Assembly: GCF_009663775.1 (NCBI RefSeq)
Contig: NZ_RDBR01000008.1
Span: 1-52,610, forward strand
Direction of reading: 5' to 3'
DNA length: 52,610 nt
From: Lactobacillus sp. 0.1XD8-4
GTDB taxonomy: Bacteria; Bacillota; Bacilli; Lactobacillales; Lactobacillaceae
The translations under genes and the position numbers were made by a program. The notes beneath the pieces were generated by a model. That model did not search any database, had not been told where the DNA came from, and saw only the letters and a program-made list of their open reading frames with translations. The first letter of the stretch is position 1, and the number at the start of each line of letters is the position of its first letter. This document shows positions 3,790-32,190 of this stretch, one piece after another.

Positions 3790-3808
3790 TATGTGCGCCT
3801 CCTAAAAT

Positions 3809-3865: not shown

Positions 3866-3883
3866 AAGTGTTTTTATAAGGAA

Positions 3884-3917
3884 AAAACTTATTAAGAGAA
3901 AATACTTAATAAGTTTT
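3884..3917. terminator. Perfect 13-bp hairpin between the GH30 gene and uidA
   Basis: AAAACTTATTAAG (3884-3896) and CTTAATAAGTTTT (3905-3917) pair perfectly around an 8-base loop. It probably ends transcription of the GH30 operon before uidA. The stem is AT-rich, so it is weaker than the terminator at 1969-2025. Confidence 0.6.
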
Positions 3918-3947
3918 ACTGTAAGATATTATTTTATGTTGTAAAAT

Positions 3948-5492: not shown

Positions 5493-5504
5493 TCCCGTTT
5501 CCCC

Positions 5505-7058: not shown

Positions 7059-7069
7059 ATTACACACCT

Positions 7070-8377: not shown

Positions 8378-8393
8378 AATACTCACTCCTTTT

Positions 8394-8408
8394 AGAAAGC
8401 GCTTTCAA
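8394..8408 (-). promoter_or_regulatory. cre site upstream of the MFS-GH30 genes
   Basis: TTGAAAGCGCTTTCT on the minus strand is an almost ideal, palindromic CcpA target. It lies between the gntP stop codon and the transporter start, about 17 bases before the ATG, where a bound repressor would act as a roadblock. Confidence 0.75.
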
Positions 8409-8409
8409 A

Positions 8410-9747: not shown

Positions 9748-9782
9748 GTTTATTCACGTCTTTTCTTTGTGTCCTATTTTAC

Positions 9783-10856: not shown

Positions 10857-10871
10857 TTTATTTTCCTTCTT

Positions 10872-14986: not shown

Positions 14987-15019
14987 TTTACAATTAAAAT
15001 TTAAGTTTCAAATCTTCGA

Positions 15020-15616
15020 CTATTTATCATCTAAATCTGTACTGATCATTGATAAATCAATATTAGATGAATCGGATAAATCAGCGTTCATTTGTGATTC
15101 TTGACTTTCCTGCTTGTTAGTTTCTTTAGTCTGAAAACTATCTTGTTTGCTTAACTCTTTCGGATTATTAAAGAAAGACTGCTCTAAAGCGCTAATTATT
15201 TCACCCTGTGAAAAAGATAAGGCGCAAGGAAAATCAGTAATTCCGAACATACCAATGACTAAAAAGATTAATTGATTCACTGATTCGCTAGGAGCCGTCT
15301 GTGCTTCAAACCAAGCGCTAACTTCACTATAGTCCGGTATTCTAATTGTTTTAGTCTTGGTTTCAAATTTTCCATTTTGGATATTGTCGCTTTTTTGTCC
15401 ATTTTTTAAATTACTATTATTAAATTTCATTTGTTGATTTGCTCGTATTTTAGGGAGTGTAGAAGGTAAATCTACTTCCCCATACAATGCAGTAATAAAC
15501 ATAATGGATTGACCAATAGATGAACCAAGCGAGTTTTGAATATCCATCCATTTTTTTACTGGTCCGTCATTATACAATTGTAAATTACGTGCTTTAGTAA
15601 CTGCTCCTCTCGGCAT
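15020..15616 (-). CDS. ParR-like partition adaptor with two ribbon-helix-helix-like units
   Basis: About 198 residues; ATG at 15616 is eight bases after GGGAG. Two similar units are visible. The first runs from a strand at RNLQLY through a helix with VKKWMDIQNSLGSSIGQSI and MFITALYG. The second runs from TKTIRIPDYSEVSAWFEAQ through SESVNQLIFLVIGMFG. Each looks like a ribbon-helix-helix half, so one chain could supply a whole DNA-binding dimer. The C-terminus is acidic and disordered, and could contact the filament. It lies 60 bases after the ParM-like gene, the normal ParMR order. Function is inferred from context and fold pattern. Confidence 0.65.
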   Translation of the reverse strand: MPRGAVTKARNLQLYNDGPVKKWMDIQNSLGSSIGQSIMFITALYGEVDLPSTLPKIRANQQMKFNNSNLKNGQKSDNIQNGKFETKTKTIRIPDYSEVSAWFEAQTAPSESVNQLIFLVIGMFGITDFPCALSFSQGEIISALEQSFFNNPKELSKQDSFQTKETNKQESQESQMNADLSDSSNIDLSMISTDLDDK

Positions 15617-15675
15617 ATGCTTCGCTCCCATTCATTATATATACATATCATTATAACAGGATTTTGTAATCTATA

Positions 15676-16950
15676 TCATTCTTTAGGACCCATTAATGCT
15701 TTCAAAATTAAAACTAAGCCCATCCTATTTAATACCTGAGCATATGATCCATCGACCCAAACAATTGGAATTATTTGATCTCCATTGAAACTCATAAATT
15801 TATTGTTAAGTTTCTCATAAAGCCGAGTAGTTTTCATTGGTACTGCAGCCCCACCGAACACAAACCCGATCTTAATACTTGTTCCAATCTTCCGTAGTGT
15901 TTGAGAAGCATTACTTACAATCTCATCAGCAAAAGGCTCTGCTGCTGAACTTACTACTTTAATAACTTTTTCTTTACTGCCTGGCGCAAATGGATTTTCA
16001 TCCTCATTAAGATATTTTTGTAATTGACGAATATTATCAAATCCATAATTCTTAGTTTGTAAGTAATCAACCGAACGTTGAAGGACATTATCGTATCCTC
16101 GCATAATAGAATTCGAAGCCATTATATTTGGTTTTCCATTAGTAATTACTGTACAGTCACTTGTTTTACCACCAAGGTCAAAACCTATCGCATCTTTAAT
16201 ATTTTTAATGAATTGATTATTAATTTTATCTGCTACTTTAGGATACTTTTCTTTAAGAGAATTAATGATGCTATTCGACAATTCAGGATAAGCATTTGGC
16301 GAATTTTTAATCGCCGCAAAAGCCACTTCTCCCTCTAACCCTACAAAAACATTTTTGAACTGCAGCGATACACTAATTGGATTTTTAAAGTTATGAAATG
16401 TGACAATATGCGTATTATCCATATATCTTTTACGATAGTTTCTTAAAACATTAGGTTGTTTCGCCTCACTGATTGGTAATGCAGTTGTCATATACACGTC
16501 CATTTTTAACTGATTATCTAAATCTTCTCCTTTTTTATAAGCATCCTGGACTCTTTTGCCGGCTAAATTGCTTAATGTAAGTAACAAAGTAAGGTCAACT
16601 TCAGATTTTCCTGATAAGTCATTGTAATCAAAATGCGTTAACGGCATTGTACTATCTAAAGCTGCTTGACCGACTAAAAATCGTCCTGCTTCACTAATTG
16701 AACTACTAGTAATAGAGACATCCATATGGTTTAAGAAATCGTCCATATAAGCATCTTTTTCTGCTTCTGAGCTAAATTCAACGGGAGCAGTTACATCTAA
16801 GGAATCTTTCATAGCAATTACTGAAGGACATTCTATATCTTCTCCAGCACTAAAAATTTGTTTTGCAGTTTCTGTACCATCACTAGTAAAGAGAGTTCCT
16901 TTCAACGAGTCATTTCCTGCATCATTTGCAAAATAAAGTTTATAAGTCAT
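15676..16950 (-). CDS. ParM-like actin-family partition ATPase
   Basis: A 424-residue protein with actin/Hsp70-fold nucleotide signatures: phosphate-1 FANDAGNDSLKG at the N-terminus, phosphate-2 GFDLGGKTSDCTVI in the middle and a Gly-rich adenosine-binding stretch IGFVFGGAAVPMKT near the C-terminus. Such proteins polymerise into filaments that push sister plasmids apart. It is longer than R1 ParM (320), with an N-terminal helical insertion. It starts with ATG after GGAGGTAATCAA, just below the repeat cluster at 16991-17091, and heads an operon with the ParR-like gene. This is the strongest evidence that the window is plasmid DNA. Confidence 0.85.
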   Translation of the reverse strand: MTYKLYFANDAGNDSLKGTLFTSDGTETAKQIFSAGEDIECPSVIAMKDSLDVTAPVEFSSEAEKDAYMDDFLNHMDVSITSSSISEAGRFLVGQAALDSTMPLTHFDYNDLSGKSEVDLTLLLTLSNLAGKRVQDAYKKGEDLDNQLKMDVYMTTALPISEAKQPNVLRNYRKRYMDNTHIVTFHNFKNPISVSLQFKNVFVGLEGEVAFAAIKNSPNAYPELSNSIINSLKEKYPKVADKINNQFIKNIKDAIGFDLGGKTSDCTVITNGKPNIMASNSIMRGYDNVLQRSVDYLQTKNYGFDNIRQLQKYLNEDENPFAPGSKEKVIKVVSSAAEPFADEIVSNASQTLRKIGTSIKIGFVFGGAAVPMKTTRLYEKLNNKFMSFNGDQIIPIVWVDGSYAQVLNRMGLVLILKALMGPKE

Positions 16951-16990
16951 TTGATTACCTCCAAAATATATTCGCTAAATAGATGTTATA

Positions 16991-17091
16991 TTGAAACTTA
17001 TTTGTTACTTATATCCGCTAATCAAAGTATAAATTTCAATATAAGCATTAATTGACACTTATATATTAATTATTTTTATTTTAAGTGTCAA
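16991..17091 (-). promoter_or_regulatory. Putative parC centromere and par promoter
   Basis: An 11-base word TTGNNACTTAT occurs at 16991, 17002 and 17052, with an inverted copy TTAAGTGTCAA at 17081-17091. A related TTTCAATATAAG lies at 17034-17045. The first two copies are directly abutted. On the minus strand, TTGACA (17091-17086), a 17-base spacer and TAATAT give a promoter whose -35 lies inside one repeat arm, and TTGACACTTA/TAAGTGTCAA form a perfect 10-bp inverted repeat around it. This arrangement fits a ParR-bound centromere that also autoregulates parMR. Confidence 0.6.
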
Positions 17092-17199
17092 TAACTATAC
17101 AAAATAACACGTAATAAAAAGATTTAATATAACTAGGGTAACTTTAATTTCAATTAAGTGAAGTTCTGCCATCAAGGGACTAATATAATTTGTAGATAA

Positions 17200-17935
17200 T
17201 CATAACCACCCGTCAAACGGGTGGTTTGCACATCGGCTATAAGCCGATAATAAAAGCCGGCGTCTCAAGGCGCTGGCTTTCGCTTTGCTCAAGCCAAAAT
17301 GCTCTGATTACTTTGCCACCGCTTTAAGCGGTGTTTGTACTACCTCACTTACCCTTAAAAGGGTCCGAATATTCCACGCTTATTAGCTTATCCATTGCTA
17401 TATCATGTTTCTCTTGATCTCGGATATACTTCTTTATTGTGGATTCATTCAATCCAACTGTACTTACATAGTAGCCTTCAGCCCAAAAATGTCGGTTCCC
17501 ATATTTGTATTTTAAATTTGCATGTCGGTCAAACATCATTAATGCACTTTTCCCTTTTAAGTATCCCATAAACTGCGATACACTTAGCTTCGGTGGAATA
17601 CTTACTAACAAGTGCACATGATCTGGCATCATATGACCTTCAATTATTTCTACTCCCTTATATTTGCACAACAAACGAATATAATCTCTCAGGTCTCTTC
17701 GATATTGATTGAAGATCGCTTTACGTCTATACTTTGGTATGAATACGATGTGATACTTACATAACCACTTCGTATGGGCTAAGCTATTTAATTTATTAGC
17801 CATATTTATATAACCTCTTTTCCCTTATTGACTTTGGCTTGAACACCTACATCTTAAGGCAAAAGAGGCCTTTTTTATATAATTTTTATCGCCCACCCGC
17901 ATAGCAGGTGGTTTTTTGTTTCGTGCATTCGCTCT
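17200..17935 (-). mobile_element. IS200-type insertion sequence
   Basis: A single-gene element of the IS200/IS605 family. The right end is marked by the hairpin AACCACCCG/CGGGTGGTT (17204-17226) and the left end by CCACC/GGTGG (17893-17911), both subterminal palindromes as used by the Y1 transposase. More hairpins lie downstream of tnpA (17235-17340). There are no terminal inverted repeats or target duplication, as expected. The outer boundaries are approximate. Confidence 0.75.
17345..17803 (-). CDS. tnpA: IS200 transposase TnpA (HUH/Y1)
   Basis: A 152-residue single-strand transposase. The HUH motif is MPDHVHLLV and the catalytic Tyr is in the helix YYVSTVGLNESTIKKYI near the C-terminus. 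Length and motifs are intact, so it is probably active. In the leader, CCTCTTTT (RNA from 17868-17861) can pair with the ribosome binding site AAAAGAGG (17821-17814), a translation-limiting structure like that of enteric IS200. It bears little close similarity to the other TnpA in the window (20601-21056), so the two elements arrived separately. Confidence 0.92.
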   Translation of the reverse strand: MANKLNSLAHTKWLCKYHIVFIPKYRRKAIFNQYRRDLRDYIRLLCKYKGVEIIEGHMMPDHVHLLVSIPPKLSVSQFMGYLKGKSALMMFDRHANLKYKYGNRHFWAEGYYVSTVGLNESTIKKYIRDQEKHDIAMDKLISVEYSDPFKGK

Positions 17936-18065
17936 GCTCACGCACTCAACTAGGTCTAAAGACATTAATAAAAAAGACGATAGTTATTCTACCGCCTTAC
18001 TTTCATATTTATATCATTTATAGCCTATAGGATAACCTTGTTCAAATTTAGACAATGTTCATTTA
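17936..18065. other. Short non-coding spacer after the IS200 element
   Basis: About 130 AT-rich bases between the IS end and the stop of the CPBP gene. No gene, clear terminator or repeat is seen. Confidence 0.5.
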
Positions 18066-18746
18066 CTACATTAAATTTGCTATTACCAACAATCCCAATG
18101 TACTAGTATTAAAAGTAATATGTGCAATAATGTTCATTTCCAGATTACTGAAGTGTAAATAAATAAATTGAAAATACAAGCTTAATAAAATGTAGATAAT
18201 CCCAATTGAGGCTCCGTGCATTTGCGCAAACACTGTTGCAACTATAAATGCACTAATTCCAACTCTCAATTTTGAATTATCAACCCAAGATGCTAGCCAA
18301 GCATCAATACGATGGAAAAAACTCTTCCGAAAGACAATTTCTTCCAAAATAGGTGCAATTATCACTACATAAGCTACATAGATTATATTTTTTTGAAGTA
18401 ATTTTACGATCAATGATGTATTTGAATTACCAATTATATGATTATTAAACTGCATTACAATTAGTAAAAATATAAGTTCAACCATTAATGGTAATAGCCC
18501 TAATCCTATTGCTTCCACAAAACTTTTCCAGGAAAGCCAGCGAATCTTAGGACGCAGCCATAATAAATAGAATATTAATAATAAAGTAAAGCTACCGGCC
18601 AGCATATATGAACCTTTAATTCCGGTAACTGTGCCAGCATATAACCAAATTAGCACATAACCAAATATGATTACCCATTCATTAAATTTTAGACTTTGTC
18701 CTTTAAGCCATAAAGCACATTTTCTTATTTTTGCTATCATATTCAT
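18066..18746 (-). CDS. CPBP-family intramembrane metalloprotease
   Basis: About 226 residues with seven or eight hydrophobic spans. The CPBP/Abi signature EEIVFRKSFF is present at about residues 140-150, followed by a conserved His segment (FAQMHGAS) and a third motif with NIIAHITFNTS. Members cleave within membranes and are often linked to bacteriocin immunity or surface protein processing. Here it is the last gene of the transfer operon, three bases after the preceding gene, so a role in maturing a transfer or surface protein is possible but not shown. Several in-frame starts (18752, 18746, 18740) are possible. Confidence 0.8.
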   Translation of the reverse strand: MNMIAKIRKCALWLKGQSLKFNEWVIIFGYVLIWLYAGTVTGIKGSYMLAGSFTLLLIFYLLWLRPKIRWLSWKSFVEAIGLGLLPLMVELIFLLIVMQFNNHIIGNSNTSLIVKLLQKNIIYVAYVVIIAPILEEIVFRKSFFHRIDAWLASWVDNSKLRVGISAFIVATVFAQMHGASIGIIYILLSLYFQFIYLHFSNLEMNIIAHITFNTSTLGLLVIANLM

Positions 18747-18755
18747 CACCACTTA

Positions 18756-19397
18756 CTAATTAACAACTGTTCCAATTGTCCCAATCCGTTGAATTTGAAT
18801 CAATTTTCTTTGATTACTATCAAATTTCACTAAGTAAATATCGGTTGTTTTAGAAGAGCTATGAGAACCTTTACGCGAAGAATATGATACTTCAACAATC
18901 CCACTAACAATTTGGTTTTGATCTATACCACTCACATAAGCATTGCTACCATCATAAACTGATGCAAGATGTTCTGCCTCAGTTATACTATGACCTGTTT
19001 TATCAAGACCATTATTGAATAACTTCTTATCATTTAGCACCGAACTGGTTGCAATCCTACGTACTTTATCCTTACGTTTGATATAAGTATTATGACTATC
19101 ATAAGTAAAATACTCATTAAAAAAATTTTTTGTAATTATTTGTAAATCATGCTTAGCTTCATAATCCTGAGTATTTTCAGACTTAGCTTTGTTAGAACTT
19201 ACTAAATTCTCATTAAGAACACTCCGACGGGCTATTTTTTGTCTTTCTTTTAGGACCTTTTTACGTTGATTTAGCATTTGCTTGACATTCGCTGTTTCTT
19301 TATTGTATTGAATCTGCTGTAGCTTAAATGTTCCTAAACAAATTAGACTGACAATGATTACTATCAAGCCTATAACTGAGGATATTTTCTTACCCAT
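18756..19397 (-). CDS. Transfer-operon protein with one N-terminal TM, NTF2/TcpC-like
   Basis: About 213 residues: one membrane span (about 5-24), a charged linker of about 60 residues (KQMLNQRKKVLKERQKIARR) and a C-terminal alpha-beta domain (from about FFNEYFTYDS). The layout matches VirB8/TcpC-like scaffold proteins of Gram-positive T4SS, but no diagnostic motif was found. ATG at 19397 is used, preceded by GAGGGCGG at the end of the previous gene; the longer GTG frame would overlap it. Confidence 0.5.
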   Translation of the reverse strand: MGKKISSVIGLIVIIVSLICLGTFKLQQIQYNKETANVKQMLNQRKKVLKERQKIARRSVLNENLVSSNKAKSENTQDYEAKHDLQIITKNFFNEYFTYDSHNTYIKRKDKVRRIATSSVLNDKKLFNNGLDKTGHSITEAEHLASVYDGSNAYVSGIDQNQIVSGIVEVSYSSRKGSHSSSKTTDIYLVKFDSNQRKLIQIQRIGTIGTVVN

Positions 19398-19398
19398 A

Positions 19399-19995
19399 TT
19401 AATCACCGCCCTCAACGTTCATAACTTGCTTAGTCACTGGTTTAATTTTTTGATAATTTAATACCTTCTCATTTTGTAGATCATAATTCATTTTAATTAA
19501 ATAAACGGCAGATTGATTATCCATAGTTTTAAAGCTAACCACCGCAATCACAGGCACCTGGTTGTTAACTTTAACTTTCCCATAACCAATTTCTACACCA
19601 TTATTTTCTTTGAAAAGCCATTCCTTAGTATTAGGATCGACATTATATACTTTCAATTGCTCAGCTAACTTAGGGCCTAAATCTTCTTCAATTTGGGTCT
19701 TATTAGCATTCCAATCATCATTTGAGTGTATTCCGCCAACAACCTTGCTTAATCCTTCTTGCAGTTTCTTAGAAGCTGTTATTTCAGCTGAATAGTAATT
19801 AAAAGAATCGTTAATAGATAATTTGTTTGCTTCATTTTGTTCAACCTTATTGATTTGGTTGTTAGTAATCCTTAATTGATCTTTGTAATAATTTAATTGC
19901 TTTTGACTCGGTATGCTTAGAACAGTAGCAATTACACACAGAATCGCAATTATCCATAATAAAATATTCGGACTCATTTTCCTCATTTCTATCAC
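19399..19995 (-). CDS. Transfer-operon protein with one N-terminal TM, unknown
   Basis: 198 residues with one hydrophobic span (about 9-25), a coiled-coil-like segment (KQLNYYKDQLRITNNQINKV) and a globular C-terminal half ending in a strand-rich part (VNNQVPVIAVVSFKTMDNQ). It has the same architecture as the next gene, so they may be a structural pair in the VirB8-like layer. The start codon directly follows the stop of the M23 fragment. No known family recognised. Confidence 0.5.
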   Translation of the reverse strand: MIEMRKMSPNILLWIIAILCVIATVLSIPSQKQLNYYKDQLRITNNQINKVEQNEANKLSINDSFNYYSAEITASKKLQEGLSKVVGGIHSNDDWNANKTQIEEDLGPKLAEQLKVYNVDPNTKEWLFKENNGVEIGYGKVKVNNQVPVIAVVSFKTMDNQSAVYLIKMNYDLQNEKVLNYQKIKPVTKQVMNVEGGD

Positions 19996-20554
19996 CTAAT
20001 TATTTATTCCTTCTTTAATAATCTTGATTGGATCAAGCCAAGTTCCGTCATCAGAATAGCCGCTTTGAACTGATGAAGTAATTGCTTTCTTGGTAATACC
20101 TAAATGTAGATGTGAGCCACTTAAAGTTCCAATTTTATCCCCAACTTTAATTTCATCACCTTCATTAACTGTAATATCCCCTCGACTGTTAAACGCTTCT
20201 TGATAAACTTCATTGTAGCCATCTGAAGATTTAACCCAGACGTACCACCAGCCAACATCGTTAGCAACCTTAAATACTTTACCGTCATGCACTGCTAAAA
20301 TTGGTTGACCCGCTCCTACAATCGCTGAACCAAAATCGTAACCATCATGGAAGTCATTTCCACCACCACGAATCATTCCGGTATGGCCATATTGTTGACC
20401 ATTTTCATATCTAGTTGGGCCATCTTTAGGAATAGTCTTAAATGGCCACCCCCATTTACCACTAGCCGTATCACCACCATCAGTATTGCACGCATTATTT
20501 TGTTGATCTTGAGCAACTCCAGTATCTGCAGTAGCGGCAGCACCATTTAATGAC
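19996..20554 (-). pseudogene. C-terminal M23 peptidase part of split conjugation cell-wall hydrolase
   Basis: The frame is open from 20376 upstream to the IS605 end at about 20554, so this is the C-terminal part of a larger gene rather than a gene starting at 20376. It begins with a linker (NGAAATADTGVAQDQQNN) and then an M23 endopeptidase domain: FHDGYDFG supplies the first zinc ligands and GSHLHLGI the HxH pair. M23 enzymes cut peptide cross-links in peptidoglycan. Its N-terminal half lies at 22556-23200. An internal ATG at 20376 could still give a 126-residue product, but without an export signal. Confidence 0.85.
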
Positions 20555-20600
20555 GCCTAGCCGGAAATCCCGTGACTTTAGTCATGGGATGGATAGGCCA

Positions 20601-21056
20601 CTATTGAGCCCCTTTATGGGGCTTTTTGTTTGTTTCTGTATATTTTTGGTCATTGATATATTTCTCTACAACTTCTTTGCTCATATTGCCCAATGTACTC
20701 ATATAGTAACTTGGCGACCAAAGATGACCGCCCCAATATTGGCTACGTCGTATTTCTGGATGATTTTGTAAAAAAATATAGGCACTACGTCCTTTGAGCG
20801 CCTTAATGGCACTAGCCGGCGCTTTGCTTGGCGGAAAACTGATCAGCATATGAATGTGATCCGGCATGACTTCCATCTTTTCGATTACGATGTCATTGTT
20901 ATCTGCAACTTGCTGCAAGATAGCTTTCATTTCGTTAGATAAGGCCTCGGTTGTAAAAGTCTGATTGCGATATTTAGTTACCCAGATCAAATGGTAATGG
21001 AAATTATAGATATAACGACGAGTATAAATGGCCTCTTTGATTTTTTCTTTAGTCAT
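20601..21056 (-). CDS. tnpA: IS605 transposase TnpA (HUH/Y1)
   Basis: A 151-residue Y1 transposase with HUH motif MPDHIHMLISFPP and catalytic Tyr in the helix YYMSTLGNMSKEVVEKYI. Full length with intact motifs. ATG follows AAAGGAG. It reads away from tnpB, as in the IS605 subgroup. Confidence 0.92.
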   Translation of the reverse strand: MTKEKIKEAIYTRRYIYNFHYHLIWVTKYRNQTFTTEALSNEMKAILQQVADNNDIVIEKMEVMPDHIHMLISFPPSKAPASAIKALKGRSAYIFLQNHPEIRRSQYWGGHLWSPSYYMSTLGNMSKEVVEKYINDQKYTETNKKPHKGAQ

Positions 21057-21129
21057 AATATGGTCTCCTTTGTTAATACATTGACATCATGATATAATAT
21101 TATTATATCAATAAGGGAGGTGAAATCAA

Positions 21130-22380
21130 ATGAAATCAATGGCGAAAATGAAATATCATTATGGCCTAAAAATGCGCTGCTATCCTAGTGACCAACAAAA
21201 GCAGTTGATTAAAATCAACAGTGACGCTAGTCGCTTTATCTATAACGAAATGGTTGCGATCAATAAGGAACTGATGCAGCTTCGCAGAGTTAAGCTACCG
21301 ATTGACATAGTTCGGGATCGTATTAAGCAACTAACTATGCGCCAAAACGCTAAGCAAATGTCTAATCACTATCAATTCTTAGAAGATAAACGAATTGATA
21401 GTTTGACGAAAGCTAATGCCATTCAGAACTATCGGAAAGCTTGGAATGCTTTTCGGAAGGTTCACACCGCTGGTGTTCCTAAGTTTCATCGAAAGAATTA
21501 TCGCTGGCGTTATCAAACCAATTGTCAATACCCAGGGCAAAAGACTGCGTTGCTAACTAACGGTACAGTCTGTTTTCTAGATAATAGCCATGTCAAAGTC
21601 CCTAAAATCGGACTGTTACGTGTTGCCGGTTCGCAAGCACGGCTTTTGAAAAGAATATGCGAGACTAGAATTGGTACTGTGACGTTGACTAAAGATTCAG
21701 CGGATCGCTTCTTCTTATCAATGCAGTTAGCTTCAGATGAATCTTTTGTTAAAGTGGCCAAAGCTACTCATGGGCATGTTGGAATTGATCTTAATACTGA
21801 TAACTTCTTAACCGACAGTGGAGGTAACATAGTTCCTAATCCACGATATTATCGCACTATTAAAGGTAAATTAGCCAAAGAACAGCGCATTTTATCTAGA
21901 CGGCAACAACGTGCAAAAAAAGAACATCGTTCTTTACGCGATAGTAAAAATTACCAAAAGCAACGCTTGCTAGTTGCCAAACTTCATGCCAAAGTAATGA
22001 ACCAAAGACATAATTTTCTCCAACAAATCTCTACTGCATTAATCAAGAACCACGATTTAGTAGTAGCCGAAGAGTTGCGTAGCAAGAATATGCTTAAAAA
22101 TCATGCTTTGGCACTTAGTATTTCTGACGTTGGTTGGCGAACATTTCTTGGCATGTTGGCTTATAAAGCAAAGCTTTATGGGCGTCAATTTATCACAATC
22201 AATCCAAGAAACACTACCCAAACATGTTGCGATTGTGGCTTTGTGATGGGCACTAATGGGACGGACAAACTAATGTTAGATGACCGAAAATGGACTTGTC
22301 CTAACTGTGGTATTCACCATATTCGTGACTGGAACGCAGCTAAAAATATTCTTGATAAGGGAATAGCTAAACTAGCTTAG
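21130..22380 (+). CDS. tnpB: RNA-guided nuclease TnpB of the IS605 element
   Basis: A 416-residue TnpB with an N-terminal helix-turn-helix/WED-like region and a RuvC domain. The catalytic acids look intact: Asp in VGIDLNTD (about 220), Glu in VVAEELRS (about 314) and Asp in IRDWNAAKNI (about 399). The zinc ribbon has CCDCGF and CPNCG. TnpB enzymes cut DNA using a guide RNA transcribed from the right end of the element and help keep the element in place. ATG after AAGGGAGGTGAAATCAA. No truncation is seen, so it is likely functional. Confidence 0.92.
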   Translation: MKSMAKMKYHYGLKMRCYPSDQQKQLIKINSDASRFIYNEMVAINKELMQLRRVKLPIDIVRDRIKQLTMRQNAKQMSNHYQFLEDKRIDSLTKANAIQNYRKAWNAFRKVHTAGVPKFHRKNYRWRYQTNCQYPGQKTALLTNGTVCFLDNSHVKVPKIGLLRVAGSQARLLKRICETRIGTVTLTKDSADRFFLSMQLASDESFVKVAKATHGHVGIDLNTDNFLTDSGGNIVPNPRYYRTIKGKLAKEQRILSRRQQRAKKEHRSLRDSKNYQKQRLLVAKLHAKVMNQRHNFLQQISTALIKNHDLVVAEELRSKNMLKNHALALSISDVGWRTFLGMLAYKAKLYGRQFITINPRNTTQTCCDCGFVMGTNGTDKLMLDDRKWTCPNCGIHHIRDWNAAKNILDKGIAKLA

Positions 22381-22556
22381 CTTATCTGTCCCTATGGCAA
22401 CCTGGGGACATAAAAGGCGTTGGTAATTAGACGACCGCTGTTTGATTACAATTTCGGTTGGTCAAATAAGTTGTCCCTATCTACGCAAATTGTGGTTCGA
22501 AATCTGTAAGGATTTTCGGCTCACAAGCCACTGACTTTAGTCAGTGGTGGTTGACG
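22381..22556 (+). ncRNA. Putative omega (guide scaffold) RNA of TnpB
   Basis: The 3' non-coding end of the element after tnpB is densely structured (CCCTATGG...CCTGGGGAC, then the terminal CCACTGAC/GTCAGTGG hairpin). In IS605 elements this right end encodes the TnpB guide scaffold, with the guide being the first 16-20 bases of flanking DNA. Here that flank would begin near GAGACTATCATTTGAGC, inside the interrupted host gene. Confidence 0.5.
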
Positions 22557-23200
22557 AGACTATCATTTGAGCTAATGTTTGAACCACCAAACTCCTGATA
22601 AGCCCATTGCGCTCCCGGATCACGTTGTTGTCCGTATTGATTTTCATTACCAGCCATACCTTCATAATCAATAAACCAATTCCATGTTGCTTGATGAACA
22701 TCTGTCGCTTTACCCACCGATGTTTTTACTTTGGTATAACCATGGTTTAGCTCGTATTGCATTAGTTTAATTTCATTGTCAAGAGTCAGTTCACTTGGGT
22801 CTACGCTCTTAATAATTCCACCAGCAATTAAGCGTTGGTTTTGACTCCACTGAAATAAGCCATTATAACCAACTCCATTTGGCTTCCAAACATCAAGTCC
22901 CGATTCACCTATTGCATTACCGACCGCTCCGGCTGCGCCAGCACCGCTAAAGCCCATCTTTTTAGTTAAGGTTTCAAAAATAGTCTTTGCTGCCTTATAC
23001 TCAGCTGAATTTTTATCTTTCCAATTTCCATTACTAATGCCGCCAGCCGAAATTGTTGCGGTATCAATACTACTATCACAGCCTTCGTCGCTACCTACTA
23101 GCATCGCAATAATTAAGGAAACTGCAAATAATAATAAAGTAATAACTCCTACAATCGAAATAATAATGCTCCAAAGATGAATTCTAGTCTTCCTTTTCAA
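22557..23200 (-). pseudogene. N-terminal lysozyme-like part of split conjugation cell-wall hydrolase
   Basis: Translation probably starts at TTG (23200) after AGAGGTGATTCTAT. It has one membrane span (about residues 10-33), then a phage-type lysozyme/transglycosylase domain (about 65-210) with the catalytic Glu in VGNAIGESGLDVW and the family pattern GYNGLFQWSQNQR. The reading frame runs into the IS605 right end and stops after a few foreign codons at 22541. With the M23 part (19996-20554) it made a VirB1/TraG-like bifunctional hydrolase that opens the cell wall for the T4SS. The truncated N-terminal part could still be translated as a membrane-anchored lysozyme. Confidence 0.85.
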
Positions 23201-23215
23201 ATAGAATCACCTCTT

Positions 23216-23464
23216 TTATAACAATGGCAGTAATTTTTCAATTAAAATCAGTCCAACAATAACTGCCAAAATAACTAATAAAAATTGTAATTTTGGTACC
23301 TGATAATTAGGTACATCGTCATCTTCAATTAGTCTTTGCGCCTGTTGATGAACAACTTTATTAGTATTTTCTTTAAACGACTTTACTTGATGAATTGATC
23401 GTCTTAATAAGTGTTCTTTTGAGGGCTTAGTATCCTCCTTGTCTTTGTTATGATGAATTGCCAT
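23216..23464 (-). CDS. Small transfer-operon protein with C-terminal TM
   Basis: 82 residues: a basic, Lys/His-rich cytoplasmic part and one C-terminal membrane span (VPKLQFLLVILAVIVGLILIEKLL). Its ATG overlaps the VirB4-like stop codon by one base, so the genes are translationally coupled. It is likely a tail-anchored accessory of the VirB4 or hydrolase complex. No family recognised. Confidence 0.6.
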   Translation of the reverse strand: MAIHHNKDKEDTKPSKEHLLRRSIHQVKSFKENTNKVVHQQAQRLIEDDDVPNYQVPKLQFLLVILAVIVGLILIEKLLPLL

Positions 23465-25392
23465 TAAATACCACCCCCATAACGACGCTCCTCTTCTTTA
23501 GTGATTTGAACCTTAAATTGAACATTACGATCTCCATTAATATTCATGAGACATTCCGTTTTTTCAAGTTTAGGCAATCCTTGTAGTTCATCGATCGTGG
23601 TTGAGCCACCAAGCGCTGTCTTTAGCCGTGGCAAATCATCATCTGAAATTTGGAAAAAGAAGCGAATTTGGAATAAGGAAAACATTTTTTGCACTGCAAT
23701 AATATAAGGATCATGCGAATTTCCATTCATAATTAAGTCTTTAATTGTTGGTGCTGCCATCGTAATAGCGCAGAAGTTTTTGCGCATTTGTTCCATCATC
23801 ATCGTGAGAAATTCAACCCCATAGGCGAACTTAGGATTAACAATATTTTCAACTTCGTCTAGATTTAAGTAATACCAAGGAATAAAGTCAGGATCTAATC
23901 GACCCTCTTTTAATAATCGCCGTAAATGCATACCGTTTTTTACAATATCTGCAGATAATAACGTTAAAATTGAGTAAATTTGAGCATTAAATACTGCTTG
24001 TCCTTGCGCTAATAATCCTTGGATGTTGAAAGTCACTACTTGTTCTCGCGAAATATCAGGGAAACGTGTAATACCGTCAAACATATCCCCTTTCTGTTCC
24101 TCAATTGAACTAAAAGTATTGGTAATGCGACTCATTGATTGTGACATTAAGCTAGTTATATGAATCTTTGGGTCCCGCTCTGCTTTACGCTTGCGTTCAG
24201 CAGCATAGATTACAAAATCCTGTAAAGTTGGGTACATATCATGAGGAAGACCGGTAATTTTGATATTCGGCATGGTCTTACGAGGATTGGCTACCCATAA
24301 GTTCTGATCAATGTAAAAGTCTCCTAACCACTGAGACAGAATTGTCATATCATCACCAGTTGCATCATCACAAAGAAACTTAAAAAAGTTAGTAAGTTTT
24401 GTAATGTGTTGAGCCATCGAGTTAATCTCATCAACCTTCCCATCATCATTAACTACTGTAGGAAAAACCTCAAATGGATTAATTAAGTTTTCTGGCTTGT
24501 CAAGACGAATAATAATTCCTCCTTGATCTTTAGTTTGATCAGTATATTCAGACGAAACATCAAAGTTCCGAATGATCGCTCCTCTTGAGAAAACATCATC
24601 ATTCATTTTCTTGAGCAATGTGGATTTACCCATACCAGCATTACCAGTTACAAAGAAAAATGACCGAGTTCGGCGATTATCCCGTTGGAATGGATCGAAC
24701 ATAACCTCCCCATTCGTTCGCGTGTAACCATAGTAAGAGCCATTGGGATCTTCCAATTTCACATGATTAAATGGGAAGAAACCAGATAAATTTTCAGCAT
24801 CAATAGGAGTCCCAATTGGTTTATTACCCATCTCTTCTTCAGACATCGTGGGAACAAAGATGGATTCAAAATCATCAAGCTGCTCATCAGCATACCTAGC
24901 CATATGGAACATTCCGTTCTGACGAATTACATCGTGAACACGCTTATCTAATTCTGCTAGAGTTGGTGCATAAACAAAAATTCGAAAGTAGATTCGTTTC
25001 ATAACTTCACTTTGCTGAGTAATCTTTTGCATTAACCGCATTTGATCATTGTAATTACCTGCAGATTGAACATTATCTAGAGCCTTAGCTTTCGATGAAA
25101 TTCGTGTTGCCTCTTCAGTTGCAGCTTTAGAAATTTGCTTAACAATCTGATCACGATTTTCAGTACCCACCGAAATAACGGCTAAAGTTGATGGACCATT
25201 TGTGAGATTAACGCCCCAGAACGGTGACATTCCTTTAGAGGGATATTTATAAATTCTTAAGCACGTTAGAAAGCCATCGCCAAATTCTAAATAACGGGCA
25301 TGACGTTTAAGATTCCCCTGTGGCTGTACTCGTGCTAAGAAGTCTAGATCATAACCAACACTTTCATAATGCAAAATATCTTTTTTCTTCAT
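23464..25392 (-). CDS. VirB4-like conjugation ATPase (TraE/TrsE)
   Basis: About 642 residues. The P-loop GNAGMGKSTLLKK is at about residue 255. The Walker B/hinge region YLNLDEVENIV and a C-terminal segment typical of VirB4/TraE (FFFQISDDDLPRLKTALGG) follow. The N-terminal third is the VirB4 membrane-associated domain. VirB4 powers substrate transfer and pilus subunit handling in all T4SS. Start: ATG 25392 after AGAGG, with GTG 25404 as an alternative. It lies 3-15 bases after the TraD-like gene. Confidence 0.9.
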   Translation of the reverse strand: MKKKDILHYESVGYDLDFLARVQPQGNLKRHARYLEFGDGFLTCLRIYKYPSKGMSPFWGVNLTNGPSTLAVISVGTENRDQIVKQISKAATEEATRISSKAKALDNVQSAGNYNDQMRLMQKITQQSEVMKRIYFRIFVYAPTLAELDKRVHDVIRQNGMFHMARYADEQLDDFESIFVPTMSEEEMGNKPIGTPIDAENLSGFFPFNHVKLEDPNGSYYGYTRTNGEVMFDPFQRDNRRTRSFFFVTGNAGMGKSTLLKKMNDDVFSRGAIIRNFDVSSEYTDQTKDQGGIIIRLDKPENLINPFEVFPTVVNDDGKVDEINSMAQHITKLTNFFKFLCDDATGDDMTILSQWLGDFYIDQNLWVANPRKTMPNIKITGLPHDMYPTLQDFVIYAAERKRKAERDPKIHITSLMSQSMSRITNTFSSIEEQKGDMFDGITRFPDISREQVVTFNIQGLLAQGQAVFNAQIYSILTLLSADIVKNGMHLRRLLKEGRLDPDFIPWYYLNLDEVENIVNPKFAYGVEFLTMMMEQMRKNFCAITMAAPTIKDLIMNGNSHDPYIIAVQKMFSLFQIRFFFQISDDDLPRLKTALGGSTTIDELQGLPKLEKTECLMNINGDRNVQFKVQITKEEERRYGGGI

Positions 25393-25406
25393 ACCTATAA
25401 ACACCT

Positions 25407-26535: not shown

Positions 26536-29247
26536 TTACTCATCATCAAAGGGATCACTTTCACGACCATGGATATGACCACTTTGACTTAAATTAAACT
26601 GCCGATTTTTGAGATAACTAGCACTACGTTGTTCTACCCCTTTTGAAAGATGAGTAACGTGTTGTCCAAATCTTTCTACTTTTCCTGGTCGTGTGACTGC
26701 TGACGGTGGAGTAGGCGACGAGTGTGTGGTTGTCGGTGCGACATTAGTGTGAGCAGTATTATCATAGTAATCACTATGTACGCTTCCTTCATCATAGTTA
26801 TTCTGTGGGTTAATATTTGTACCTGGTATATTACGGTTAAAGGTATCGTTTTGACTTGAGTTTGTCCCATAGTGACTGTTAAATTGGTCATTGCTTACAT
26901 TAGGATTATTAACTTGCTTGCTAAAATCATTATTAGCAATATTAGGGTCATTCGGATCCATTGTAGGTGATTGATTCATTTGGTCCGCCCATTGGCTGTT
27001 TTGTGCATCATTGATGCCAACAGTATTTGAGCTAACTTCATTTGCATTATTCATTTGATCTGCCTGCTGTTGGAAATTACCGTCCGCTGGTTCATTCCCT
27101 AATAGACTATCCCAGTTGCTTGAATCCTGAAGACCATTATTAGCTTCTTGTGAAGGTGTTGATGGGTCAATATTAGCAGCAGAATCAGCATTATTAATCT
27201 GATCAGCTTGATCTGCAAAACTTGCGTTAGCACCAGTTGTATCTGGATCATCAAAGTTAATTCCGGCTGGTTGTTGATCTTGATCGTCAACTGCCTGACC
27301 ATTATCAACTAATCCTTCATTTGCTGGATTATCTACTGTATCTGGGGCTGCAGTTGAGTTGGTATTGTAACTGCTACTGCTTCCTTGACTATTGCCTTCA
27401 TAATTATCTGAGGATTGGCTATTTCCATATGAACTATTGTTAGCTTGTCCATAGCTAGATGATTGGCCCTGACTAGTATTTGAACTATTACCTTGGTTAT
27501 TTGTTTGACCATTGCTAGTTGAAGTATTAGTACCATAACCGTTACTTTGAGATTGTCCAGTAGCAGTGTTAGTACTATCAGACTGTCCGGTTGAATTACT
27601 GTTACTCTGTGCAGAGTTACTACTTTGATTTTCTGACAAACCAGTAGCGGTATTTTGTGATTGAGCATCACTAGTACTGAGTCCAGTATTATTAGATGCA
27701 CTGTTATTAGTACTATTAGCAAAGCCTCCCATTTGTGATGAATCAGTATTGTTAGTCTCAGATAAGCCAGTAGCCTTATCAGTTCCATGAGACTGAGAAC
27801 TATTATTGGTAATTCCATGAGCATTACTCTTATTTAACATACCACCAAGTATCGAGAAACTTTTACCTGCGCCACGCATTGCAAATCCACCAACGGCACC
27901 AGCCATTGCACCAGTTGCCATTAATTGCCCGGCTTCTTCACTAAGTCCCTGAGATACTCCGGTAACTCGTTCAAAATAAGAAATCCCAGCAAAAGAAGCA
28001 TAACCACCAGCTGCATAGATAATCGCAATCGCTAGACTACGCTCGATCCAGCTCAAATTATCTGGTAGCTTACTTGGAGCTACATTAATAAAGATAAAAT
28101 AAACTTTAATAATCAAAACCAATAGTACTAATGACAGGAACCAGCCCACCACTGAGCTAAGAAAATCTCGCCATTTTTTTGAGCTCCGAACACTCTGTGC
28201 TGCAATAAACGGTGCTGCTAAATTCATTAAAGAAAGTTCATAAATATCTTTAGCTACCCTAAATGAAGCTACGATGAGCACAATGCCTAAAATAAGAGAC
28301 TGACCAATTAAGCCAAGCCAGTTAACAGAATATCGCGAATAGTAGCTGTTCATCCATTTGGCAAATTTATGATAATCATTCTTTTCAATCGAATAGCCAC
28401 CATCGGTTTGTTCATGTTCATCAACTAAATGGTAATTCATAACGGCCTCAGCATCTTTATGTTTTTTATCCAATCCTAATCCTTTCATGGTTGGTTCATC
28501 CATAAAGTCACCAAGATCCATGTTTTCAATATCATCATCATTATCTAAAACATTCCAGTTAGCAACGTTTTTAATTTTGCTAGAATCTGGCTTGTACTGG
28601 TAATTCCCCCAATCTTTCCGGATTAAGGTGCTTAAATCAATTACATTATTTTTGATTGGTTGCACAGCTAAATCTTCACTCATACCTTTATTACTCGCAT
28701 GATTAATATCTGAACGCGCGCTAATAGCAATATCTCCGAATCCAGGAATTGTACTATTACCACCAGCCACACGCATCATCATTGGTAAGATAGTTAAGGT
28801 AATTGAAACCATGACAATATTTGGCAAAATTTTGCTCCACTTTGAAGCATGGCCCATTGTCTGCATAGCTACTAAAATAATTGCCAAGACTAATAATGAC
28901 CATCCAATTGCCGAAACGACAACATACAGGCCATGCAATGGGGATCCAGGGCTTGATAAGGTTCCATCCCAGCCTAATAAGCCAAACATAGCATCAAATA
29001 TCTTTTCAAAACTTTCATTGATATGAAAAATAGTTTGAACTATCACATTTTGAAAGAAACCAGCAACAGCATGCAAAGTTCCCCAGGATAAATGAAGATA
29101 ATTTCGCCAATCTTCATAAAAGCGAATTATTTTCCCAGTATCACCATCTGGAATACTAGAATACGGTCCACCACTAACCGCTTGATCCAAACTACTTGAA
29201 TTGATCGCTAGTAATGATAAGCATAAATTCTTAATCAGTATCCACAT
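26536..29247 (-). CDS. VirB6-like polytopic protein with N/S/Q-rich tail (TraL/TrsL-like)
   Basis: 903 residues. The N-terminal half has about seven membrane spans (residues about 100-430), with an extracellular-type loop after residue 170, as in VirB6/TraL channel proteins. A Gly/Ala-rich hydrophobic segment (GAMAGAVGGFAMRG) ends the membrane part. Residues about 470-850 are very low in complexity, dominated by Asn, Ser, Gln, Thr and Gly (for example NSNSTGQSDSTNTATGQ), then a short basic end. ATG after AGGAGGCGTAATAG. The gene is translationally close (3 bases) to the VirD4-like gene. The tail is far longer than in classical VirB6. Confidence 0.75.
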   Translation of the reverse strand: MWILIKNLCLSLLAINSSSLDQAVSGGPYSSIPDGDTGKIIRFYEDWRNYLHLSWGTLHAVAGFFQNVIVQTIFHINESFEKIFDAMFGLLGWDGTLSSPGSPLHGLYVVVSAIGWSLLVLAIILVAMQTMGHASKWSKILPNIVMVSITLTILPMMMRVAGGNSTIPGFGDIAISARSDINHASNKGMSEDLAVQPIKNNVIDLSTLIRKDWGNYQYKPDSSKIKNVANWNVLDNDDDIENMDLGDFMDEPTMKGLGLDKKHKDAEAVMNYHLVDEHEQTDGGYSIEKNDYHKFAKWMNSYYSRYSVNWLGLIGQSLILGIVLIVASFRVAKDIYELSLMNLAAPFIAAQSVRSSKKWRDFLSSVVGWFLSLVLLVLIIKVYFIFINVAPSKLPDNLSWIERSLAIAIIYAAGGYASFAGISYFERVTGVSQGLSEEAGQLMATGAMAGAVGGFAMRGAGKSFSILGGMLNKSNAHGITNNSSQSHGTDKATGLSETNNTDSSQMGGFANSTNNSASNNTGLSTSDAQSQNTATGLSENQSSNSAQSNSNSTGQSDSTNTATGQSQSNGYGTNTSTSNGQTNNQGNSSNTSQGQSSSYGQANNSSYGNSQSSDNYEGNSQGSSSSYNTNSTAAPDTVDNPANEGLVDNGQAVDDQDQQPAGINFDDPDTTGANASFADQADQINNADSAANIDPSTPSQEANNGLQDSSNWDSLLGNEPADGNFQQQADQMNNANEVSSNTVGINDAQNSQWADQMNQSPTMDPNDPNIANNDFSKQVNNPNVSNDQFNSHYGTNSSQNDTFNRNIPGTNINPQNNYDEGSVHSDYYDNTAHTNVAPTTTHSSPTPPSAVTRPGKVERFGQHVTHLSKGVEQRSASYLKNRQFNLSQSGHIHGRESDPFDDE

Positions 29248-29250
29248 CTA

Positions 29251-32190
29251 TTACGCCTCCTTCTTAAATTGATTAATAAAGTCAATAGCATTTTCATATA
29301 GAGCTGAATTTCCTTGAAATAGATCTTCTAGTTCGGTGTAACTATTATGATTTTTCCAATAGTTATAAGTGTCCTGAAATAACCCCATTGCAACCTCTTT
29401 TGGTTGGACACTATGGACCAGGCTATAAATATTTCTGCTAAGACTTCTTAAACGGTCATGATCATTTAACTCTGTATCAGTAAAAATCCGATCTTTTGAA
29501 TCCGCATGCGAGATTACATCATCATTAACCTCAGTAGGAATACTATCGTTAAACTGAGCTTCAAAGTCTTTCATAAAGCTGCCGCTAACTGATTCCTGTG
29601 GATTCCCGCTTAAATCTAAAATTTGTTTATAGGCGAGATCATAATTAATCCGCTTTTCTTTTAAATCTAATCGCCGATGCAAAGAAACAATTCCAATATC
29701 TGACAAGGTGGTTTGATCGTTGAATTCTTTCTGTAAGAAGGTATTTCGATATGGCATCTTAGTCTTTCCATGATCAAAAATTGGTTTGGCTGAGATTGAA
29801 TTACCACGTTGATCCATCCGATAAACTGATCGTAACACTACCATTTCACCACCCATGAATTGCATTAATTCAGGAACCGATAAAATATCTTGACTAATTA
29901 ACTGACTATTAACACTAGCACTGTGCCAGTTTCCAACTTGGCCATTAATATTTTCAACAGAAACTGTCCGCTTCCCAATTCGTTTAGAAATGCTTTCTGC
30001 AGTTGTCGTTGAGTTAGTCAAAATATATAAAATATTAGAACAGTTGCTCTCAATGGTTTTAGCTTCCTGTTCGCTATAATGAATTTGTAACTGTTCTAGA
30101 TTTTGTACGACAATATCAAACATCATGTTAAAACCTAAACAGATTGAAATTTTCTTAGTCATATCTCGAATTGTCGGTATTTCAGCATACTCATCTAAGA
30201 CAAAATGAACGCGACGAAATAGTTTTCGCCCATTGCTTTCAGCCATTCCATATAAAATATTGAAGGCTTGGTCAATTGCAAACGCCGGTAATTGATTATA
30301 TGTTGAGTTATTAGGCGGTGTGACTAAAAATAAAGCAACAGGTGCTTCTGAATATTTAAGCTTTGTCTCTGATTCTATAAGTTCCCCAGAAAGTTGATTG
30401 CTTTTCACTTTAAGTGAAACATCCTTAAGAATTGGCTTCTTAGTGTAAGGGTCTAGCTTAAACTTTCTCCCTAATCCTTGTTTAGCATAATTTTTGTGAC
30501 CTTGAAGTACAACTTCTTGATCAAGCACATCTGCTGAATTTTTTCGATAATTGAAACTGATTTTAATTAGAAAATCATCTGGCAAAGTAGTCTTAATTGC
30601 ATATTGAAGATTTCCGACCTTATCGATTAGCTGCGTACGCTTTTCCAATTTATTTCCATGAAGATCATCAAATTCAACAACGGCAGTCTTAAACTGATAT
30701 TTCGGATCAGAAAATTTTACTTTAAGCGTTCTAGGAAAACCAAGCTTAGTAAAATCAAGCGAATTCAAAGAAGTCATTTTAGCAATATCAGATTGCTGAT
30801 AGATTTTGATTCCTTCCATTGCGCTCGAATAGATATTTCCAGACGTTTCATCACCGGCAAATTTACTTTGTGCAAATGCATCTAAAGCCATTTGTCTAAA
30901 TTTGCTGTAGTTCTTTTCGTTAAGCTTTTGCAATTTAGCAAAATAAACTAATAATTTATTCTTTTGTGAGACTGGTTTATTATCTTCTGGCATTTCTAAA
31001 AGTCCACTATCTACTTCATCATCAGTAGGAATAATATCTCCAGATGAATTTAGTAGAACTTCTTTAGAACCTAATTCTGTCATCATATGCAAGACATTAT
31101 CCATCGTGACTTCAGCCCAGTTATTATTACGTTTAGCATGATCAACAACAGCCAAAATTAAAGCATTTAGTAAATTAATCGATGAATTTTGCCAGAATTT
31201 ATCCTTAGCATTCGGATCTACATAAATACTAGAAGAAAGGCTATTCACCGCTTGCTGGGTCTCATCATAATAGCCGTCTTTAGCATAATCAATAATCTGT
31301 TGTAATGGGTTATAACTCATTGAAAAATCTGGATTCTGAATATTGAGAACTTCAACCTCATAGCCTCGTTTACGTAAGGTCTCATAAGACATTTGATAAA
31401 GTTCCCCTTTGGAGTCATTCACCACCATTGAAGACTTTTTTTGTGCGCGTGACAAAATATCAATCAATGGCATAACTTCCGTTTCACCTTTACCAGAACG
31501 AGAGATACCAATTAATAGACTATTAATAGTTGTTTGATCAATTGAGTAAAAACCTTTAGCTGGTTCAACAAGCTTCATTTTCCCTTTTAATCCAGGAAAA
31601 GCAGATAATAATTGTAAAAGCTTAGGACACAGATAATAGCTTGTGTAAAGTCCTGGATGGTACTTAATAAATTCTGAGTTCGGTGTAATGTGTGAAACTG
31701 GAATTCCACCATAGCCAGGAAAAGAGGCTCCTCGATCAGCAATCTGTGGATATTGCCGAAGTATTTCCTTTTCTGTCGCTAAACGATCGTTTCCATATTG
31801 TGAATGTTTAGTTGGCTTCCAGCGAATTCTCATCTTAATAATCATCGGAACCAGGATCAAACTGAAGAAAAGTTCAATTCCCCAGAAAAAGCCAGGTGCC
31901 TGATGCATTACTCGATAGTTTCCTAAATTACTAAACTCCCAGCCGGCCACCACTGAACCAAAAGAGTCTTGAGGGATAATTCCATTGAGAATCTGTGCTA
32001 AAAACTGTCCGGAGGCTGGCGAAGTTACCCAATAATACGAAGCACTAATTCCACTGGCTAACCAGCAAACCACATAGCTCACTACAATAGAGTAAATAAG
32101 CCATATTCCAATTAGAAATATCGGTGATCCTAAAACTTTCTGATCCTGTCCGTCTTTACGATGACGTTCACGATCATAATTTTTTGCCAT
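29251..32190 (-). CDS. VirD4-like type IV coupling protein (TraG/TrsK)
   Basis: 979 residues. Two N-terminal membrane spans (about 24-46 and 100-118) precede the ATPase. Walker A is GISRSGKGETEV (about 229) and Walker B VHFVLDEYAEIPT (about 667). Coupling proteins recruit the relaxase-DNA complex to the channel. The distance between the Walker motifs is unusually long: a beta-rich insert at about 500-645 (for example FDDLHGNKLEKRTQLIDKVG) accounts for much of the extra length over the usual 550-700. ATG after AAGGAAGTTAGGTC. The C-terminal 150 residues are acidic and helical, a likely substrate-recognition end. Confidence 0.9.
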   Translation of the reverse strand: MAKNYDRERHRKDGQDQKVLGSPIFLIGIWLIYSIVVSYVVCWLASGISASYYWVTSPASGQFLAQILNGIIPQDSFGSVVAGWEFSNLGNYRVMHQAPGFFWGIELFFSLILVPMIIKMRIRWKPTKHSQYGNDRLATEKEILRQYPQIADRGASFPGYGGIPVSHITPNSEFIKYHPGLYTSYYLCPKLLQLLSAFPGLKGKMKLVEPAKGFYSIDQTTINSLLIGISRSGKGETEVMPLIDILSRAQKKSSMVVNDSKGELYQMSYETLRKRGYEVEVLNIQNPDFSMSYNPLQQIIDYAKDGYYDETQQAVNSLSSSIYVDPNAKDKFWQNSSINLLNALILAVVDHAKRNNNWAEVTMDNVLHMMTELGSKEVLLNSSGDIIPTDDEVDSGLLEMPEDNKPVSQKNKLLVYFAKLQKLNEKNYSKFRQMALDAFAQSKFAGDETSGNIYSSAMEGIKIYQQSDIAKMTSLNSLDFTKLGFPRTLKVKFSDPKYQFKTAVVEFDDLHGNKLEKRTQLIDKVGNLQYAIKTTLPDDFLIKISFNYRKNSADVLDQEVVLQGHKNYAKQGLGRKFKLDPYTKKPILKDVSLKVKSNQLSGELIESETKLKYSEAPVALFLVTPPNNSTYNQLPAFAIDQAFNILYGMAESNGRKLFRRVHFVLDEYAEIPTIRDMTKKISICLGFNMMFDIVVQNLEQLQIHYSEQEAKTIESNCSNILYILTNSTTTAESISKRIGKRTVSVENINGQVGNWHSASVNSQLISQDILSVPELMQFMGGEMVVLRSVYRMDQRGNSISAKPIFDHGKTKMPYRNTFLQKEFNDQTTLSDIGIVSLHRRLDLKEKRINYDLAYKQILDLSGNPQESVSGSFMKDFEAQFNDSIPTEVNDDVISHADSKDRIFTDTELNDHDRLRSLSRNIYSLVHSVQPKEVAMGLFQDTYNYWKNHNSYTELEDLFQGNSALYENAIDFINQFKKEA

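What the first reader, a model, noticed from the sequence alone, without database searches (positions are those of the whole stretch)
19996..23200. IS605-type element splits the conjugation cell-wall hydrolase
A membrane-anchored lysozyme-like N-terminus and an M23 C-terminus are separated by about 2 kb of IS DNA. Both frames are open to the element ends and can be rejoined in frame as NDSL-SLNGA with small choices of the cut point. The hydrolase is expected to be needed for wall passage of the T4SS, so the plasmid may be transfer-defective, or the element may excise precisely and restore the gene, since IS605 leaves no duplication.
Basis: seen in the sequence. Interest (0 to 1): 0.6.

Follow-up and report, generated by a model that had tools for sequence, protein, structure and literature searches.

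The report
IS605 insertion splitting conjugation wall hydrolase
A common kind of jumping gene has landed cleanly in the middle of a plasmid gene that probably helps DNA pass the cell wall during bacterial mating, leaving one half readable and the other stranded; it is an ordinary event, with an RNA-guided cutter aboard that should work against its reversal.

Summary
Confirmed, with corrected boundaries. One 2005-nt IS200/IS605 element (window 20551-22555; TnpA Y1 transposase and TnpB nuclease, catalytic positions present) lies 3' of a TTTAA target inside a gene of a conjugation operon. The gene encodes a membrane anchor, a phage-tail-type lysozyme domain and an M23 peptidase domain. Other copies with unoccupied sites give the rule: TTTAA kept, no base gained or lost. 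Under it both halves share one frame; the junction is NDSL|LNGA, not NDSL-SLNGA. The N half still encodes the whole anchored lysozyme domain. The M23 half has no evident usable start or export signal. Whether transfer is lost is untested: in the pCF10 analogue PrgK only the muramidase domain showed activity. Precise excision is possible in principle, but TnpB, whose predicted guide is the adjacent hydrolase sequence, should cut exactly that excised form. No excised form is in the assembly. New instance of a well-known kind; modest interest.

The parts
22556..23200 (-). 5' half of the split hydrolase gene: TTG start behind AGAGGTG, membrane anchor, complete Phage_lysozyme2 domain (215 codons)
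   Evidence: anchor and ribosome site read by eye
22541..22555 (-). four codons (VNHH) and a stop codon supplied by the right end of the element, ending the N-half product at 219 aa
   Evidence: sequence
19996..20550 (-). 3' half of the split gene: linker and M23 peptidase domain with both metal-site motifs (FHDGYDFG, HLHLG); 184 codons plus stop
20546..20550 (+). target site TTTAA, 5' of the left end; also the predicted TnpB motif (TAM)
20551..22555 (+). IS200/IS605 element, 2005 nt, divergent tnpA and tnpB
20569..20588 (+). left-end subterminal hairpin (CCCGTGACTTTAGTCATGGG)
   Evidence: nearly unchanged in the copies
22528..22547 (+). right-end subterminal hairpin (CCACTGACTTTAGTCAGTGG), followed by TGGTTGAC
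   Evidence: similar hairpins in the copies
20601..21056 (-). tnpA, Y1 HUH transposase, 151 aa (HIH 67-69, Tyr 133)
21130..22380 (+). tnpB, RNA-guided endonuclease, 416 aa (RuvC D, E, D positions and zinc ribbon present)
22556..22575 (+). predicted TnpB guide: flank next to the right end, i.e. hydrolase sequence
   Evidence: inferred from the position rule in PMC8612924 (passages)

Best explanation
A TnpA/TnpB-type IS200/IS605 element inserted, by single-strand peel and paste, 3' of a TTTAA in the linker between the lysozyme and M23 domains of a plasmid conjugation hydrolase gene. No base was duplicated or lost. Result: a shortened, membrane-anchored lysozyme-only protein is still encoded; the M23 half is silenced for practical purposes. 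TnpA could in principle excise the element and leave the gene whole, but TnpB, guided by the neighbouring hydrolase sequence next to the TTTAA motif, should cut the excised form and any uninterrupted sister copy, so the inserted allele is expected to be kept. Shown by sequence: anatomy, boundaries, frame, relatives. Inferred from published mechanism: excision, TnpB cutting, effect on transfer.
For: Domains. Ends: TTAA before the left end in 18 of 18 distinct left ends read (the window's included), TTTAA in 17 of 18, and GTGGTTGAC at the right end in 13 of 13 copies with both ends in hand. Unoccupied sites among the 20 loci fetched: for the L015 copy 9 of 9 alignments that cross the junction read TTTAA there, 5 of 9 without any gap over 240 nt; for the L014 copy 6 of 7 crossing alignments have no gap. 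The frame opens at 2005 nt and the joined protein aligns across the junction without a gap at that point to L046 (46%, 415 columns) and L003/L047 (52%, 345 columns). Uninterrupted relatives: 14 of 14 loci read, second-domain motif in 14 of 14, Pfam second domain in 8 of 8 scanned. TnpA residues 13-138 of 151 and TnpB residues 13-410 of 416 align to solved relatives 2xm3 and 8h1j (ISDra2 proteins, as recalled) with the catalytic positions kept. Gene order around it resembles L008, with a VirB4-like ATPase just upstream and a pLS20_p028 family gene further upstream.
Against: No near-identical plasmid without the insertion was found (no match in 'plasmids' at that sensitivity; best N-half relative in genome contigs 55%), so the empty site is inferred from other copies and from distant relatives. 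In the L014 set 0 of 7 homologous sites read TTTAA, so they are homologous genes, not strict empty alleles. In one search further matches to the L015 joint cover one flank only (e.g. G035, G043). No Rfam model matched the expected guide-RNA scaffold. The VirB4-like match lies under its curated cut-off. Expression and TnpB activity are untested.
Confidence: 0.93

Rival explanations
1. The lysozyme and M23 parts are two natural neighbouring genes and the element merely sits between them.
For: M23 domains occur with other partners, for example glucosaminidase in L009, and 9 of 14 relatives of the N half have another kind of second domain.
Against: 14 of 14 loci of the N half are one frame through a second hydrolase domain; 4 of 8 scanned have the same lysozyme-M23 order; the M23 half has only an internal ATG and GTG as possible starts, and its frame is stopped just inside the element.
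Confidence: 0.03
2. The element is a reversible on/off switch: regular precise excision restores the hydrolase in part of the population.
For: Same-frame junction and no duplication; transposase catalytic positions present.
Against: No excised form in the assembly, 0 matches at up to 1 mismatch, although an assembly shows only the major form; the TnpB expected to cut the donor joint looks intact (mechanism in PMC8612924, passages).
Confidence: 0.05
3. The split gene is still adequate: the anchored lysozyme half alone carries out wall passage and the M23 loss hardly matters. (This concerns the effect, and can hold together with the best explanation.)
For: The lysozyme domain is complete and anchored; in PrgK only the muramidase domain showed activity and the LytM site is degenerate (PMC11323569: abstract, Introduction, part 1 of 2 of the Discussion).
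Against: Here the M23 metal-site motifs are kept, unlike the degenerate LytM of PrgK, and 8 of 8 scanned lysozyme relatives keep a second domain; PrgK without its muramidase domain partly complemented, and in pIP501 TraG two domains are reported to work better together (PMC11323569).
Confidence: 0.3

Closest known systems
ISDra2 (IS200/IS605 family, TnpA and TnpB)
   Same: Y1 transposase and TnpB nuclease, partly palindromic ends, insertion 3' of a short AT-rich target; best solved relatives 2xm3 (transposase) and 8h1j (TnpB) (that these are the ISDra2 proteins is recalled)
   Different: Target TTTAA instead of TTGAT; divergent genes instead of partially overlapping ones (ISDra2 facts: PMC8612924, passages)
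IS605 of Helicobacter pylori
   Same: Left end next to TTTAA; about 2 kb (PMC2993954, passages)
   Different: Not compared at sequence level here
Near-identical copies in lactobacilli
   Different: Other insertion sites; the L. fermentum copy is itself interrupted by an IS256 element
PrgK of pCF10 and phi29 gp13
   Same: Phage-lysozyme-type muramidase combined with a LytM (M23-type) domain (PMC11323569)
   Different: PrgK has LytM, MUR and CHAP domains and a degenerate LytM; this gene is lysozyme then M23 with motifs kept, and is interrupted. Not compared at sequence level here
TnpB plasmid gene drive (PMC11870625, preprint)
   Same: TnpA/TnpB element in a plasmid, guide taken from the insertion site
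   Different: There shown by experiment; here only predicted

Membership tests
IS200/IS605 insertion sequences | Y1 HUH transposase with catalytic tyrosine | tested here: met
   PF01797 1.2e-41; aligned to 2xm3 with H-x-H and Tyr kept (which residues are catalytic is recalled)
IS200/IS605 insertion sequences | Subterminal hairpins at both ends | tested here: met
   Hairpins at both ends, also in other copies; read by eye, terminal inverted repeats not searched for
IS200/IS605 insertion sequences | Insertion 3' of a fixed short target, no duplication | tested here: met
   TTTAA in 17 of 18 left ends, TTAA in 18 of 18; unoccupied sites of the L015 copy ungapped in 5 of 9
IS605 subgroup with TnpB | TnpB with RuvC D, E, D and zinc ribbon | tested here: met
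   (catalytic role of D, E, D recalled)
TnpB guide-RNA system | Guide RNA made from the right end plus flank | not testable with these tools
   No Rfam match; no RNA data
Conjugation peptidoglycan hydrolases of Gram-positive T4SS (PrgK/TraG type) | Membrane anchor plus extracellular wall-hydrolase domains | tested here: met
   PF18013 and PF01551 in the two halves; hydrophobic N-terminus read by eye, no topology program run
Conjugation peptidoglycan hydrolases of Gram-positive T4SS (PrgK/TraG type) | Encoded within the transfer operon near the VirB4-like ATPase | tested here: met
   VirB4-like gene 23464-25404 (206.6 bits, under the curated cut-off), pLS20_p028 gene 26536-29247 and VirD4-like gene 29251-32190 (both over it); similar order in L008
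Conjugation peptidoglycan hydrolases of Gram-positive T4SS (PrgK/TraG type) | Needed for DNA transfer | not testable with these tools
   Needs mating assays

The most novel reading that the evidence does not exclude
Because the guide is taken from a transfer gene, this element's TnpB would destroy uninterrupted sister plasmids that share this stretch of the hydrolase, spreading an allele that may weaken the plasmid's own transfer: a selfish drive acting against plasmid mobility.
Probability: 0.15. Interest if true: 0.5.

Novelty: new member of a known kind. Interest (0 to 1): 0.25.

Why it matters
It is a clean natural example of an IS605 element in the linker between two domains of a conjugation hydrolase. 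That makes two questions testable: whether the lysozyme domain alone supports transfer in a Gram-positive T4SS, and whether TnpB drive can fix an insertion that harms its carrier plasmid. As a mobile-element event it is ordinary.

Tried and rejected
The literal ends of the first BLAST matches (20558-22555, 1998 nt) were rejected: 8 bases after the first T of the element vary between subfamilies and cut the alignments short, and that length would close the frame. A TTTAAT target (2004 nt) was rejected because the unoccupied sites have no extra base and because it closes the frame.

An intact second copy of the gene elsewhere in the genome was looked for and not found. The other lysozyme2 match (contig C57, 646 aa) reads like a secreted protein with a C-terminal cysteine-peptidase-like part, and the other M23 match (contig C40, 847 aa) reads like a prophage tail protein (naming by eye, no family scan of these two).

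Led nowhere: viral-contig scan (123 stretches matched a pattern, none encodes a relative); Rfam for the guide RNA; near-identical plasmids for the transfer region (no match); paper search for Lactobacillus conjugative plasmids with TnpB (0 papers with all 5 terms); joints of L055 to L058 in plasmids (no match covers both flanks by more than 9 bases); L061 joint (one match with 6 gaps and a poor fit at the junction). Tandem repeats of 15000-24000 gave one unrelated row.

Not followed: weaker N-half relatives L005, L006, L007; 34 of 94 records and 376 of 436 were not listed; one search gave loci for 20 of its matches only. L009 has M23 without the lysozyme domain and is not in the 14.

Full report
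What is there. The window lies on contig C112 of a 2.2 Mb genome in 122 contigs. Its genus is taken to be Limosilactobacillus: the protein of same-genus genome G012 (L004) is identical to that of L. fastidiosus (L049) (inference). The contig carries sugar-acid genes and a transfer region with a VirD4-like gene and a pLS20_p028-type gene (both over their curated cut-offs) and a VirB4-like gene (under its cut-off). On the minus strand, downstream of the VirB4-like ATPase and a small 82-aa frame, lies the split gene.

The two halves. The N half (22556-23200) starts at a TTG behind AGAGGTG, has a hydrophobic stretch read as an anchor, and contains the complete Phage_lysozyme2 profile. Four codons and a stop from the element end it at 219 aa. 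The C half (19996-20550) contains the M23 domain with both metal-site motifs; the one solved relative found, 5gt1, is named choline binding protein A and aligns over the M23 region. Its frame meets a stop just inside the element, and its only possible starts are an ATG at codon 59 and a GTG at codon 87, by eye without a ribosome site or export signal. So the M23 half is effectively silent (inference).

The element. TnpA matches the solved transposase 2xm3 (E 1.4e-29) and TnpB the solved TnpB 8h1j (E 3e-40) over most of their lengths, with the catalytic positions kept (that both are ISDra2 proteins is recalled). Among 301 family genomes searched, the window's own included, 71 had some match, many of them partial. 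One copy was found in the held genome.

Where it begins and ends. Aligned copies showed TTTAAT, then 8 bases that differ between subfamilies, then GCCGG or a close form. In 18 of 18 distinct left ends TTAAT precedes, in 17 of 18 TTTAAT (found by similarity to the end, so the set is selected, and the window is one of the 18). To decide whether the T belongs to target or element, flanks of other copies were joined and unoccupied sites sought. For the L015 copy, 9 of 9 alignments that cross the junction read TTTAA there, 5 of 9 with no gap in 240 nt and 4 of 9 with gaps; one of the 9 is in the window's own genome (L074). Other matches cover one flank only. The right flank of L015 begins with T, so the cut could sit one base over, but the length is fixed. 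For the L014 copy, whose right flank begins with C, 6 of 7 crossing alignments have no gap and 1 of 7 has 2; 0 of these 7 sites read TTTAA, so they are homologous genes rather than strict empty alleles. Together they give target TTTAA, with the element starting at T: 2005 nt here.

Independent agreement from the frame. Of the lengths 2005, 2004 and 1998, each suggested by some reading of the ends, only 2005 keeps one frame: 399 codons, junction NDSL|LNGA. 1999 nt also does, but no shared end supports it. The joined protein aligns without a gap at the junction to L. murinus (L046, NDSVLG) and to L003/L047 (NDSLLG).

Refuting result looked for. 14 of 14 loci read for the N half carry one frame through a second hydrolase domain, by motif M23 in 5 of 14 and the CSGFVW cysteine-peptidase type in 9 of 14. 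They are 12 distinct proteins: L003/L047 and L004/L049 are identical pairs, and L004/L048, L011/L050 and L052/L053 are close, so fewer independent cases. Of eight scanned with Pfam, 4 of 8 have M23 and 4 of 8 an NlpC/P60 or Amidase_5 type domain over the cut-off, with further related families under it. L009, not among the 14, has M23 with a glucosaminidase instead of the lysozyme. L005 to L007 were not read. So a lysozyme-M23 single gene is the ordinary arrangement of which this is a broken example.

How it likely works. From the published mechanism (PMC8612924, passages), TnpA excises and inserts single strands next to the target, and TnpB uses a guide RNA from the right end plus flank and cuts where the target motif stands beside the flank, i.e. 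at the excised joint. TTTAA is a demonstrated motif of an archaeal TnpB (PMC10640517, passages) and the inferred IS605 target (PMC2993954, passages). Here the guide would be hydrolase sequence from 22556 onward. A preprint reports that plasmids with such an element displace matched plasmids without it when TnpB is active (PMC11870625, abstract and part 1 of 2 of Results).

Effect on transfer. PrgK of pCF10 is called essential for conjugation, and only its muramidase domain had measurable activity; variants without that domain still partly complemented (PMC11323569: abstract, Introduction, part 1 of 2 of Discussion). Here the lysozyme part survives and the M23 part, with motifs kept, is lost. 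Reduced or altered rather than abolished transfer is plausible; nothing here tests it. The next gene (19399-19995) lies outside the element and keeps its own start region, but its transcription now has to cross or restart within the element. No terminator-like site was listed on the minus strand of 19900-23400, and promoter-like sites were about as frequent as in shuffles (13 against a mean of 11.5).

Verdict. A real, precise and structurally well-supported insertion; ordinary in kind.

Noticed in passing
window 17345-17803 (-): A second IS200/IS605-family transposase gene (Y1_Tnp; NF033573), about 2.2 kb from the split gene.
   Followed up: no
window 20552-20559 and left ends of other copies: The 8 bases after the first T of the element differ between subfamilies at fixed length, while the rest of the left end is conserved.
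   Followed up: partly
L016, L023, L064: Short internally deleted forms of about 600-940 nt with both ends kept, looking like non-autonomous derivatives.
   Followed up: no
window 33529-35988 (-): An 819-aa frame inside the transfer region with no Pfam or NCBIfam match at E 0.001; no relaxase was named among the proteins scanned.
   Followed up: partly
window 36855-38690 (-): A Clp-type AAA ATPase inside the transfer region.
   Followed up: no
window 2035-12503: Sugar-acid gene cluster: glycosyl hydrolase families 2 and 30, MFS transporter, GntP permease, UxuA, mannitol dehydrogenase-like.
   Followed up: no
L003/L047: A relative of the hydrolase with three domains, glucosaminidase plus lysozyme plus M23.
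   Followed up: no
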